Below are positions 4,210-14,971 of a stretch of 64,000 bases of DNA, piece by piece (within the stretch, counting starts at the first letter, position 1; each line of letters begins with the position of its first letter). Source of the stretch: an uncultured Ignisphaera sp. (GTDB lineage: Archaea > Thermoproteota > Thermoprotei_A > Sulfolobales > Ignisphaeraceae); the NCBI GenBank assembly GCA_938074605.1, contig CALJEI010000002.1, positions 186,001-250,000 of the forward strand, read 5' to 3'. The position numbers and the translations under genes were made by a program. Under the pieces are notes generated by a model. The model was not told the DNA's origin and ran no database searches. It worked only from the letters and a program-made list of their open reading frames with translations.

Positions 4210-5067
4210 ATGGCTGTACCAAGAATTATACCTGTGTTAGACTATAATTATGTTGTAGAGAGAATTACCAAATTTCTAGAGGAAATGCTTAGAAGAAGCA
4301 ATGCAAATGGTTATGTTGCTGGTCTTAGTGGTGGTATTGATTCAACTACTGTTACATATCTAGTGGCTAAAATGCTGGGTAAAGAAAAGATAAAGGTGCT
4401 AATAATGCCTGACTTGGATGTCACCCCTAAGGAGGATACTGAAGATGCTATGGATGTTGCAAAGACGTTAGGTGTTGAATACTATCTATTTGATATTTCC
4501 GAAGTAGTTAAATCCTTTTCAAGAGTTTTGCCATTCTTTGATACAAACCATAATCTTTCTGTGGGAAACCTAAGAGCTAGAATAAGAATGTCATCACTAT
4601 ACTATTTCGCAAATAGATTTAATATGCTAGTCATAGGCACAAGTAATAAATCAGAGTTATTGCTAGGATACTTTACCAAGTATGGAGATGGTGGAGCCGA
4701 TGTTCTACCACTAGGTGACCTTTATAAAACTCAGGTAAGAGATTTAGCTAAATTTCTTGGAATTCCTGAGAAAATAATATCTAAGCCAAGTAGCCCAAGG
4801 CTATGGAAAGACCAATTAACAGAGGATGAGCTAGGGCTAAAATATGAAATTATAGACTCCATACTGTATCTCTACATCGATAAAAGGATGAATATTAATG
4901 ATGTTGCCTCAATTTTAGGTATACCCATAGATGTCGTAAATAGTGTAGTAAGAAGGGTGTATAGAAGTAGGCATAAGAGAAGCCTTCCTGCAATACCTAA
5001 ATTAACCAGTATAGACATAGTTTACAACATGAAGCTACCTACATATGCAGAAGATCAGATGCCATGA
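4210..5067 (+). CDS. nadE: NAD+ synthase, ammonia-dependent
   Basis: NAD synthase amidates deamido-NAD with ATP and ammonia, the last step of NAD formation. The PP-loop S-G-G-I-D-S lies at residues 40-45. The second conserved stretch, G-T-S-N-K-S-E-L-L-L-G-Y-F-T-K-Y-G-D-G, followed by the G-D-L-Y-K-T-Q-V segment, forms the deamido-NAD and dimer site. The protein is 285 residues with no N-terminal glutaminase domain, so it should use free ammonia. The ATG at 4210 is preceded by an AT-rich promoter region. The stop codon lies inside the C box of a downstream C/D sRNA, so the mRNA 3' end and the sRNA overlap. Confidence 0.95.
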   Translation: MAVPRIIPVLDYNYVVERITKFLEEMLRRSNANGYVAGLSGGIDSTTVTYLVAKMLGKEKIKVLIMPDLDVTPKEDTEDAMDVAKTLGVEYYLFDISEVVKSFSRVLPFFDTNHNLSVGNLRARIRMSSLYYFANRFNMLVIGTSNKSELLLGYFTKYGDGGADVLPLGDLYKTQVRDLAKFLGIPEKIISKPSSPRLWKDQLTEDELGLKYEIIDSILYLYIDKRMNINDVASILGIPIDVVNSVVRRVYRSRHKRSLPAIPKLTSIDIVYNMKLPTYAEDQMP

Positions 5068-5111
5068 TGTGATGTAGCAAATCTGAAAAGTGATGAAGGG
5101 CTCAAAACTGA
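5064..5111 (+). ncRNA. C/D box sRNA overlapping the nadE stop codon
   Basis: The elements read C box ATGATGT (5064-5070), 12-nt guide, D' box CTGA (5083-5086), 3-nt spacer, C' box GTGATGA (5090-5096), 11-nt guide and D box CTGA (5108-5111). This is the standard archaeal dual-guide layout for 2'-O-methylation. Only the last base of the C box departs from RTGATGA; an overlapping GTGATGT at 5069 is less likely because its guide would be only seven bases. By the rule that the nucleotide paired five bases upstream of D or D' is methylated, the targets would be G in ATTTGCTACATC (D') and G in TTTTGAGCCCT (D). The 5' end overlaps the nadE stop and the 3' end overlaps the end of the convergent HIT gene. 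Confidence 0.8.
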
Positions 5112-7668: not shown

Positions 7669-9528
7669 ATGAAAATTTTGCTAATACACGCAAAAACCTT
7701 CTCATATAAAGCTAAAGAAAAAGCTATAGAAGAAGGAGAGGACATTGTACAGGAGAACATGGAAGGAGTTTTTGAGAATGCACTTGTAGTTTTTACAACA
7801 GTTGAAGAAGATGATGGCAGAAATCCAAATCCTGTTATTAGTAAAGCCGTTGAAGAAATACTGGAGGTAGTTAAGAATGTAGGTGCCTCAATTATTGTAA
7901 TATATCCTTACGCCCACCTCTCATCTTCCCTAGCACCGCCAAAAACTGCGATTAGCATACTAGATTCATTAAAGATAGTTCTATCAGAACGTGGAGTTAA
8001 GGTGGTAAGAGCACCCTTTGGGTGGTATAAGGAATTTATACTCCATTGTTATGGCCATCCACTAAGCGAGCTTTCTCGCCAAATATCGGCTACTGAAGAG
8101 GGTAGTAGGAGAGTTATTGAAAAGAAATACTACATACTTACACCAGATGGAAGGCTAATAAAACCTGAGGAATATAGATTTAGTGAAGAGGAATTAGAAC
8201 TAAAAATTTTAGTGGATAAAGAGGTGTTTAGAAAAGAATCTGAAGGAGGTCAAGGTAGAGTACAGTATTATTTAAGGAAGTTTGGCTTTGAATGGGAGGA
8301 GTATTCTGATAGGGGGCATCTTAGATATGAGCCTCATGCAACCTTAATTCTAGAGGCTGTTTCAGCATATTCATGGCGGGTAGCAAATTCTTTAGGCATA
8401 CCTGTTTTTAGAGTTCGTGGCACTAACATGTTTAACCTTGTTGCTGAGCCTATTAAACAGCATGCTGACCTTTTTGGCGAACGAATGTATGAAGTAAAGA
8501 TAGATGCAGATAAATTTGTACTTAGATTTGCTGCCTGTCATCAGCAGTTTTCAATACTTAAGGATTGGGTGTTGAGCTATAAGGATCTACCTATCGGAAT
8601 GTTTGAAATAGCAGATAGCTATAGATATGAGCAGAGAGGTGAACTAGTACTAGGCTTTAGATTAAGAAGATTCCATATGCCGGATCTACATATATTAACA
8701 CATAACTTAGAAGAGGCTAAAAAAATAGCATTAATAGTTAGAGATAAAATTGTAGAAGAGGCTAAAAAAATAGAGAGGGATTATCAAGCAATATACAATG
8801 TAACTGAAGATTATTTAAATACACATTTTGACTATATTGTAGAGCTCGTAAGGAGGGAGGGAAAGCCCGTTCTTCTAGTGGTATATCCAGCTGGTATATA
8901 CTATTGGGTTATAAATGTTGAATATTTAATCATAGATGAACTTAGTAGGCCTAGAGAAATAGCTACATGGCAAATTGATATAGGAAATGCCAAGAGGTTT
9001 GGTATAAAATATGTTGATGAAAGTAATATGTATCAATACCCCGTCATAATCCATACAGCTATTATTGGCTCCATTGAGAGATACATATATATGGTATTCG
9101 ATAAGATAGCACTCGATGAAGCAAAGGGTATACCCCCCACATTACCCCTTTGGATGTCGCCAATACAGGTAAGATTAATACCTATATCTAAAGAGTATCT
9201 AGAGTACACTACTAAGATAGCATCTATGCTCATAAATAGTGGAATACGAGTTGATATTGATGATAGGGATGAGAGTCTAGGTAAAAAAATTCGTGATGCT
9301 GGAATAGAGTGGATACCCTATATTGTTGTTATAGGTGAACGTGAGGCTAAGACAAATACTATTAATATTCGTATCAGAAGAAATGGAATTCAGAAAACAT
9401 TTACATCCGAAGAGTTCATAAAGATTCTCGAAGAAGAATTGGATGGATATCCAAAAATTGAAGGTACACTACCGCTATATCTAAGTAAGAGACCAAAACT
9501 ATATTATCTCCAACCACTAACAACATAA
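7669..9528 (+). CDS. thrS: Threonyl-tRNA synthetase, archaeal type with editing domain
   Basis: Charges tRNA-Thr. The 619 residues comprise the archaea-specific N-terminal editing domain related to D-aminoacyl-tRNA deacylase (about 1-140, M-K-I-L-L-I-H-A-K start), a linker, the class II catalytic core and a C-terminal anticodon-binding domain (about 515-619). The catalytic zinc ligands are Cys290 (R-F-A-A-C-H), His336 (R-R-F-H-M-P-D) and His462 (V-I-I-H-T). Motif 2 is in the segment around residues 320-335. Some crenarchaea split catalysis and editing between two proteins; here both are in one chain. The stop is followed within about 20 bases by a C/D sRNA and then mvk, all on the plus strand. 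Confidence 0.96.
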   Translation: MKILLIHAKTFSYKAKEKAIEEGEDIVQENMEGVFENALVVFTTVEEDDGRNPNPVISKAVEEILEVVKNVGASIIVIYPYAHLSSSLAPPKTAISILDSLKIVLSERGVKVVRAPFGWYKEFILHCYGHPLSELSRQISATEEGSRRVIEKKYYILTPDGRLIKPEEYRFSEEELELKILVDKEVFRKESEGGQGRVQYYLRKFGFEWEEYSDRGHLRYEPHATLILEAVSAYSWRVANSLGIPVFRVRGTNMFNLVAEPIKQHADLFGERMYEVKIDADKFVLRFAACHQQFSILKDWVLSYKDLPIGMFEIADSYRYEQRGELVLGFRLRRFHMPDLHILTHNLEEAKKIALIVRDKIVEEAKKIERDYQAIYNVTEDYLNTHFDYIVELVRREGKPVLLVVYPAGIYYWVINVEYLIIDELSRPREIATWQIDIGNAKRFGIKYVDESNMYQYPVIIHTAIIGSIERYIYMVFDKIALDEAKGIPPTLPLWMSPIQVRLIPISKEYLEYTTKIASMLINSGIRVDIDDRDESLGKKIRDAGIEWIPYIVVIGEREAKTNTINIRIRRNGIQKTFTSEEFIKILEEELDGYPKIEGTLPLYLSKRPKLYYLQPLTT

Positions 9529-9550: not shown

Positions 9551-9607
9551 ATGATGATCTGTTGCCCTCTCTGACACAATGTTAATGATGACATGAACCT
9601 CCTCTGA
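9551..9607 (+). ncRNA. C/D box sRNA in the mevalonate kinase leader
   Basis: The order is C box ATGATGA (9551-9557), 13-nt guide, D' box CTGA (9571-9574), 10-nt spacer, C' box ATGATGA (9585-9591), 12-nt guide and D box CTGA (9604-9607). All four boxes are perfect. The spacer is longer than most archaeal C/D sRNAs have. Predicted methylated nucleotides by the fifth-base rule are the central G of AGAGGGCAACAGA (D') and the G at position five of AGGAGGTTCATG (D). The D box overlaps the GAGGT ribosome-binding site of the following gene, so processing of the RNA and translation of mvk should exclude each other on one transcript. Confidence 0.82.
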
Positions 9608-9616
9608 GGTATGGAA

Positions 9617-10645
9617 ATGGGAGTAGTTAGTATCAGACTTCCAGTAAAAGTCACATTATTTGGGGAACATGCCGTTGTATATAATAAACCCGCTATAGCC
9701 TCTACAATACCAGTCTTTATAGATATTGCTGGAAGGAGGTTAGATAGTAAAAGAATTATAATTAATCTAGGTAGCGCTAATGCATTAATAAAAGAAGTTA
9801 TATTTAACAGAGTTACCAGTGAATATACTACAACTCCAGACGAGAACTATTTGTCACGTTTTGCTAGCTACATTATAGCAGGGATAGAGATCTGCGAAGA
9901 TGAGTTAAAAATTGGTAGCAGGAGTGGATATGAGATAAATATAGTGAGTAGCCTACCAATAGGAGCTGGACTAGGCACTTCTGCAGCTATCTCTGTTGGA
10001 ACAATAGCTCTATGTTTAACGCTCAACAATAGCCATAACCTTGAAGATCCCCATATCAGAAAAACAGTTGCTCTATTAGCATGGAAAACAGAACAGAGAG
10101 TTCAAGGCATGGCAAGTCCCATGGACACATTCACCATTACATATGGTGGTATTAGGTATATCAGGCCATGGATACCAGATACTGAAGTCCTAGCTCCTAT
10201 AGAGCAACTCAATATCATTGTTGGCTACACCTCTAAAAGACATACAACCGCTGAGTTGGTAAAGAATGTAAAGAGTCTAAAAATGAGAGAGGAGTCAATA
10301 CTAAATATGTTATTAGATGTAGTAGAGAAGATAGTTGAGGAGGCTAGAAATGCCTTTATTCATAGAGATGTTGAAAGACTTGGAACTCTAATGAATATTA
10401 ACCATGGTGTACTAGAGTCATTAGGCGTGGTATCTCTAGAACACAGCAATATAGTAAAGACTTTGCTTGCTGCTGGGGCACTTGGTGCAAAAACTAGTGG
10501 TGCAGGCGGTGGTGGTGCATTTATAGCTCTAGCTAAGGATAAAAAACATGCAGTTCTATTAAAAAATATCGCAGAGGCATTAGGTGCAAAAATTGTAGCC
10601 ATAGAACTATATGATAAAGGCTTTATAGCTAGCTATAGAGAATAA
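9617..10645 (+). CDS. mvk: Mevalonate kinase
   Basis: Phosphorylates mevalonate in the pathway to archaeal isoprenoid lipids. The GHMP kinase motifs are clear: an N-terminal P-V-K-V-T-L-F-G-E-H-A-V-V-Y, the ATP loop P-I-G-A-G-L-G-T-S-A-A around residues 115-125, a conserved Asp in M-A-S-P-M-D-T-F-T and a C-terminal T-S-G-A-G-G-G-G-A. I place the start at ATG 9617, not the in-frame ATG at 9611, because GAGGT (9606-9610) is then six bases upstream. The leader contains a C/D sRNA. The nuclease-like gene follows after about 20 bases on the same strand, and the convergent MEMO gene lies just beyond it. Confidence 0.94.
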   Translation: MGVVSIRLPVKVTLFGEHAVVYNKPAIASTIPVFIDIAGRRLDSKRIIINLGSANALIKEVIFNRVTSEYTTTPDENYLSRFASYIIAGIEICEDELKIGSRSGYEINIVSSLPIGAGLGTSAAISVGTIALCLTLNNSHNLEDPHIRKTVALLAWKTEQRVQGMASPMDTFTITYGGIRYIRPWIPDTEVLAPIEQLNIIVGYTSKRHTTAELVKNVKSLKMREESILNMLLDVVEKIVEEARNAFIHRDVERLGTLMNINHGVLESLGVVSLEHSNIVKTLLAAGALGAKTSGAGGGGAFIALAKDKKHAVLLKNIAEALGAKIVAIELYDKGFIASYRE

Positions 10646-14924: not shown

Positions 14925-14971
14925 GTGATGAAGACTCCCATCTGAAAGGTGATGATTTCGAACCTCACTGA
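14925..14971 (+). ncRNA. C/D box sRNA, possible tRNA-directed guide
   Basis: Perfect boxes in order: C GTGATGA (14925-14931), 10-nt guide, D' CTGA (14942-14945), 3-nt spacer, C' GTGATGA (14949-14955), 12-nt guide, D CTGA (14968-14971). The D guide is complementary to TGAGGTTCGAAA, which resembles a tRNA T-stem and TPsiC loop, so the target could be a tRNA; the base chosen by the five-base rule would be the G just before the loop (position 53). The D' guide is complementary to ATGGGAGTCT. The gene lies between two minus-strand genes and needs its own promoter. Confidence 0.85.

What the first reader, a model, noticed from the sequence alone, without database searches (positions are those of the whole stretch)
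9551..9617. C/D sRNA whose D box overlaps the ribosome-binding site of mevalonate kinase
The D box CTGA (9604-9607) shares bases with GAGGT, the apparent ribosome-binding site for ATG 9617. If the sRNA is processed from the transcript, that copy cannot translate mvk. L7Ae and fibrillarin binding could therefore compete with the ribosome, tying lipid precursor synthesis to RNP supply.
Basis: partly seen in the sequence, partly recalled or inferred. Interest (0 to 1): 0.6.

Follow-up and report, generated by a model that had tools for sequence, protein, structure and literature searches.

The report
Ribosome-methylation guide RNA between thrS and mvk
In a heat-loving archaeon of the Ignisphaera group, a small RNA that directs methylation of ribosomal RNA sits right after the threonyl-tRNA synthetase gene, and its last signal happens to overlap the ribosome landing site of the next gene, mevalonate kinase; the overlap is real but not kept in most relatives, so a regulatory link is possible but looks incidental.

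Summary
[quoted passage not shown] The motif is not chance. The sRNA and its guides are conserved in 16 of 18 family genomes (10 of 10 near-complete). Both guides fit the 16S rRNA head, 54 nt apart.

The gene the sRNA stays next to is thrS. Outside the family, 22 of 25 homologous loci lie at the 3' end of a thrS-family gene, on either strand, and none has mvk nearby. Within the family the mvk SD overlaps the D box in 5 of 14 sense-strand loci; elsewhere the start lies up to 51 nt away. In one relative the sRNA is inverted in place, and in another it has moved away while mvk keeps a GAGGT SD.

C/D genes overlapping neighbouring ORFs, and L7Ae masking an SD, are both published. I read this as a known arrangement in which one transcript probably cannot be both sRNP and translated mvk mRNA, without evidence of physiological coupling.

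The parts
7669..9528 (+). thrS, threonyl-tRNA synthetase with archaeal editing domain; the gene next to which the sRNA is found across the order
   Evidence: NCBIfam NF003068 E 1e-248, Pfam PF08915; adjacency in relatives
9551..9557 (+). C box ATGATGA
   Evidence: T-G-A-T-G of the box invariant in 14 family sRNAs
9558..9570 (+). D' guide TCTGTTGCCCTCT; best family-wide target 16S GGGCGACAG, predicted Gm at own 16S 1141
9571..9574 (+). D' box CTGA
9585..9591 (+). C' box ATGATGA
9592..9603 (+). D guide CATGAACCTCCT; target 16S AGGAGGTGCATG (1191-1202), predicted Gm at own 16S 1195; also complementary to the mvk SD
9604..9607 (+). D box CTGA
9606..9610 (+). GAGGT, Shine-Dalgarno sequence of mvk, sharing GA with the D box
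   Evidence: 5-nt match to own anti-SD, 6-nt spacing to ATG 9617
9597..9610 (+). possible hairpin ACCTC(9597-9601)/GAGGT(9606-9610) that would hide the SD in unbound RNA; predicted stable at 37 C, marginal at 70 C, open at 85 C
9617..10645 (+). mvk, mevalonate kinase (ATG 9617 preferred; ATG 9611 alternative)
   Evidence: TIGR00549 208 bits over its cut-off 163; N-terminal comparison

Best explanation
This is a canonical double-guide box C/D sRNA gene that has long lived at the 3' end of thrS and guides 2'-O-methylation in the 16S rRNA head. In the Ignisphaera family mvk became the next gene downstream. Where the spacer shrank, the D box (CTGA) followed by GG was used as the mvk Shine-Dalgarno sequence. 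The sRNA is most likely cut or trimmed out of a thrS read-through transcript. On any one molecule sRNP assembly and SD-led mvk initiation should exclude each other, which would lower mvk output somewhat, but the overlap looks like an opportunistic by-product of gene packing and not an evolved switch. Shown by sequence: boxes, guides, conservation, thrS linkage, variable mvk spacing. Inferred: co-transcription, processing, methylation, effect on translation.
For: Box architecture and lack of chance explanation. A profile of the sRNA finds it in 16 of 18 family genomes, all 10 near-complete ones. Guides fit 16S 1141 and 1195, 54 nt apart; 0 of 400 shuffled guide pairs score as well. N8 of the D guide is A in most genomes but C or T in L100-L104 and L108, which restores pairing to GGAGGTGCAT and supports that target; the target is present in G005, G008 and G020. 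Outside the family 22 of 25 loci are next to the 3' end of a thrS-family gene, 15 on the same strand and 7 opposite, none with mvk within about 1.5 kb. The mvk start lies 3 to 51 nt after the D box, with SD/D-box overlap in 5 of 14. A second D-box/SD overlap in the same genome, L064 before an unrelated ORF, shows that CTGA+GG readily serves as an SD. The thrS stop falls inside the C box in G005, G006, G014 and G012, matching the published 3'-overlap pattern (PMC7994747).
Against: No transcript, 5'-end or methylation data exist here. The overlap is identical in G000 and G008, whose mvk proteins are only 73% identical, and also occurs in G011, G012 and G014, so some selection for it cannot be excluded. 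The D guide has one mismatch (N8) to 16S in this genome. For the D' guide, 23S 386-397 scores slightly higher than the 16S site in this genome.
Confidence: 0.8

Rival explanations
1. One reading: L7Ae/Nop5/fibrillarin bound at the terminal k-turn blocks the ribosome at GAGGT, so mvk translation reports the supply of C/D core proteins and ties isoprenoid lipid synthesis to it.
For: Bases are shared. L7Ae masking an SD beside a k-turn is shown for l7ae mRNA in Sulfolobus acidocaldarius (PMC5539422). Fibrillarin is encoded in this genome. The overlap recurs in 5 of 14 relatives.
Against: 9 of 14 sense-strand loci lack the overlap; the sRNA is inverted in G015 and absent from the junction in G001, where mvk keeps a GAGGT SD. 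The order-wide neighbour is thrS. Mature C/D sRNPs are normally excised, stable products, so repression would act only on unprocessed co-transcripts.
Confidence: 0.1
2. Processing makes the message: release of the sRNA from a thrS-sRNA-mvk transcript cuts close to 9608-9612 and yields a nearly leaderless, translatable mvk mRNA, so sRNA production and mvk expression go together and do not compete.
For: The sRNA 3' boundary lies only 3 to 9 nt from the start codons in this genome. Leaderless translation is common in archaea (established knowledge).
Against: Published model: the sRNA body is protected while flanks are trimmed by nucleases or degraded (PMC7994747), which would destroy the downstream piece. 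SD use is common in this window. Spacing varies from 3 to 51 nt in relatives.
Confidence: 0.1
3. mvk has its own promoter inside or upstream of the sRNA and is not co-transcribed with thrS; the overlap has no consequence because mvk mRNA starts at or next to its ATG.
For: Only 82 nt separate thrS and the first mvk ATG and many archaeal mRNAs are leaderless (established knowledge). G001, without the sRNA, still has mvk after thrS.
Against: No clear TATA/BRE element was seen by eye about 25 nt before either ATG, where the C' box lies. GAGGT is an SD match at good spacing.
Confidence: 0.15

Closest known systems
Archaeal box C/D sRNA genes overlapping 5' or 3' ends of ORFs (Tripp et al. 2017 as summarised in PMC7994747)
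   Same: Same gene class and arrangement: 25% overlap an upstream 3' end, often with the stop in the C box; 7% overlap a downstream 5' end, which lowered expression of a downstream reporter.
   Different: Here the gene lies next to thrS across an order, in some relatives touches both neighbours, and the shared bases downstream are the SD and not the start codon.
l7ae 5'-UTR k-turn autoregulation in Sulfolobus acidocaldarius (PMC5539422)
   Same: L7Ae-binding k-turn strand next to a Shine-Dalgarno sequence in an mRNA leader.
   Different: There a simple k-turn without guides regulates the gene of the binding protein itself and is conserved; here it is a full double-guide sRNA, the gene is metabolic, and the overlap is not conserved.
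Double-guide rRNA-targeting C/D sRNAs (PMC4644070)
   Same: Two guides hit one rRNA within 100 nt, allowing one mismatch and G-U pairs.
   Different: The text of that paper names helices 3, 18 and 27 as the region of densest 16S predictions; the sites predicted here are in the head domain.

Membership tests
archaeal box C/D guide sRNA | C (RUGAUGA), D' (CUGA), C', D (CUGA) in order with 10-13 nt guides | tested here: met
   9551-9607
archaeal box C/D guide sRNA | boxes and guides conserved in relatives | tested here: met
   alignment A1; 16 of 18 family genomes
archaeal box C/D guide sRNA | guide complementary to rRNA or tRNA with the target paired to N5 upstream of D/D' | tested here: met
   16S G1141 and G1195, joint score 0 of 400 shuffles; D guide has one mismatch at N8
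archaeal box C/D guide sRNA | core proteins encoded | tested here: met
   fibrillarin PF01269 E 2.6e-103; L7Ae and Nop5 not searched
archaeal box C/D guide sRNA | expressed, bound by L7Ae/Nop5/fibrillarin, directs methylation | not testable with these tools
   needs RNA sequencing, CLIP or RiboMeth-seq
L7Ae-controlled mRNA leader | k-turn strand next to or overlapping the SD | tested here: met
   D box and GAGGT share 9606-9607
L7Ae-controlled mRNA leader | arrangement conserved in relatives | tested here: not met
   5 of 14 overlap; inverted in G015; sRNA absent from the junction in G001
L7Ae-controlled mRNA leader | translation changes with L7Ae | not testable with these tools
   needs reporter assay

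The most novel reading that the evidence does not exclude
The thrS-sRNA-mvk transcript is a true cis switch: each molecule becomes either a 16S-methylation guide sRNP or a translatable mvk message. In unbound RNA the guide's own CCTCC masks the mvk SD, so ribosome-modification capacity limits isoprenoid lipid synthesis in this clade.
Probability: 0.08. Interest if true: 0.6.

Novelty: new member of a known kind. Interest (0 to 1): 0.25.

Why it matters
It adds a conserved C/D sRNA family, with a predicted dual target in the 16S head, that keeps its place at the 3' end of thrS across several families even when its strand flips. It shows how easily a D box followed by GG can double as a Shine-Dalgarno sequence, giving a natural series of relatives (overlapping, spaced, inverted, lost) in which the cost of 5' overlap on the downstream gene could be measured.

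Tried and rejected
A better D-guide target than 16S: the exact complement GGAGGTTCAT occurs only three times in the genome, once as the sRNA's own antisense and twice antisense to coding ORFs, so it was rejected. Rfam at gathering thresholds gave nothing. Stable structure of the leader: its folding energy is not better than shuffles (z 0.61), and the SD/guide hairpin is open at 85 C in prediction. A conserved terminal stem outside the C and D boxes was looked for by eye in alignment A1 and not seen. No paper in the held library names box sRNA, threonyl-tRNA synthetase and archaea together.

Full report
Observation. The stretch 9551-9607 (+) reads ATGATGA-TCTGTTGCCCTCT-CTGA-CACAATGTTA-ATGATGA-CATGAACCTCCT-CTGA, followed by GGT and ATGGAAATG. 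All four boxes are perfect. The full pattern occurs twice in the window and in none of 100 second-order Markov versions of it. A looser pattern (C, D', D) gives 26 places in the 1.63 Mb genome against 2 for the pattern read backwards. GAGGT (9606-9610) shares GA with the D box, matches the complement of the genome's own 16S tail GATCACCTCCT over 5 nt, and lies 6 nt before ATG 9617. ATG 9617 matches the start of relatives' proteins better than ATG 9611. SD-like matches are common in this window: 37 of 51 genes with 4 nt or more, against 18% of random positions.

Setting. The genome is a crenarchaeon of the Ignisphaera group; named relatives with the same sRNA are Ignisphaera sp. RSNS13, SKYB63 and others. 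Upstream is thrS (7669-9528) and downstream mevalonate kinase. A profile built from 14 family sRNAs finds the sRNA in 16 of 18 family genomes, including all 10 near-complete ones; the two without it are 56% and 70% complete.

Targets. The D guide pairs with 16S AGGAGGTGCATG at 1191-1202 of this genome's 16S with one mismatch (N8), predicting methylation of G1195. The D' guide pairs with CGGGGGCGACAG at 1137-1148, predicting G1141. No shuffled guide pair of 400 scored as well jointly within 100 nt; this criterion follows PMC4644070. In L100-L104 and L108 the mismatched guide base is C or T, which restores pairing to GGAGGTGCAT, and that target is present in G005, G008 and G020. For the D' guide a 23S site (386-397) scores slightly better in this genome, but the family consensus guide prefers the 16S site, so that assignment is less certain. 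By universally conserved sequence I place both sites in the head domain of 16S, the D-guide site in helix 34 next to the residue equivalent to E. coli C1054 (own knowledge, not computed).

What the sRNA is attached to. Within the family, 14 genomes carry it in sense orientation between thrS and mvk. G015 carries it inverted in the same place. G001 has it elsewhere (contig 22), while its thrS-mvk junction and a GAGGT before mvk remain. In four genomes (G005, G006, G014, G012) the thrS stop codon TGA is inside the C box. Outside the family I examined 25 homologous loci: 22 are next to the 3' end of a thrS-family gene (7-241 nt in 21 of them, 525 nt in one), 15 on the same strand and 7 on the opposite strand; 3 are not; none has mvk within about 1.5 kb. 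Some of these neighbours keep the ThrRS editing and anticodon-binding domains but show no hit to the catalytic domain. So thrS is the lasting neighbour and mvk, most simply, a later one. A few partial matches in further genomes were not examined.

The D box and the mvk ribosome-binding site. The mvk start lies between 3 and 51 nt after the D box in the 14 sense-strand loci (start choice is uncertain in some). The best SD overlaps the D box in five (G000, G008, G011, G012, G014) and not in nine. A second case exists in the same genome: the sRNA at G000:C10:33289-33335 ends CTGAGGAATATG before an unrelated 341-aa ORF. Because CTGA followed by GG makes GAGG, a D box 9 nt before a start codon can serve as an SD by chance or by easy selection.

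Mechanism. Established work reports that most archaeal C/D genes lack their own promoters and are matured from neighbouring transcripts, that 25% overlap an upstream 3' end and 7% a downstream 5' end, and that 5' overlap lowered reporter expression (PMC7994747). In S. acidocaldarius, L7Ae bound next to the SD of its own mRNA represses translation; disrupting the k-turn raised reporter activity 1.6-fold (PMC5539422). By analogy, on a thrS-sRNA-mvk transcript sRNP assembly should block GAGGT; this is inference. The D guide's CCTCC could also pair with GAGGT in unbound RNA, but that hairpin is predicted to be open at 85 C. A regulatory link that mattered for lipid synthesis would be expected to be conserved, and it is not. 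An excised sRNA might even leave a nearly leaderless mvk message, so the claim that processing kills mvk expression is not secure.

Verdict. A correct and careful observation; a real, family-wide C/D sRNA not covered by Rfam at threshold; an arrangement of a known kind; a proposed physiological coupling that relatives do not support. What is most worth keeping is the order-wide link to thrS with strand flips.

Noticed in passing
G015 (L114), and L096, L097, L105, L106, L109, L111, L112: The same sRNA gene lies at the 3' end of thrS but on the opposite strand in eight genomes of three families, as if flipped in place; several flipped copies have AT-rich TATA-like stretches 25-45 nt upstream of the C box (judged by eye).
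   Followed up: partly
window 14925-14971 (+): A second strict C/D sRNA (GTGATGAAGACTCCCATCTGAAAGGTGATGATTTCGAACCTCACTGA); its D guide TTCGAACC is complementary to the conserved tRNA T-arm sequence GGTTCGAA.
   Followed up: no
window 5064-5111 (+): A third, slightly relaxed C/D sRNA candidate (ATGATGTGATGTAGCAAATCTGAAAAGTGATGAAGGGCTCAAAACTGA).
   Followed up: no
L064 (G000:C10:33289-33335, - strand): Another C/D sRNA in the same genome whose D box runs into GAGG just before the ATG of a 341-aa ORF, repeating the D-box/SD overlap.
   Followed up: partly
L100-L104, L108: Position N8 of the D guide is A (mismatch to 16S) in most genomes but C or T in these, restoring pairing; why the mismatch is kept elsewhere is unexplained.
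   Followed up: partly
L002 (G000:C10:76876-78570): The 16S rRNA match spans 1695 bases against a 1478-position model, which suggests an insertion or intron.
   Followed up: no
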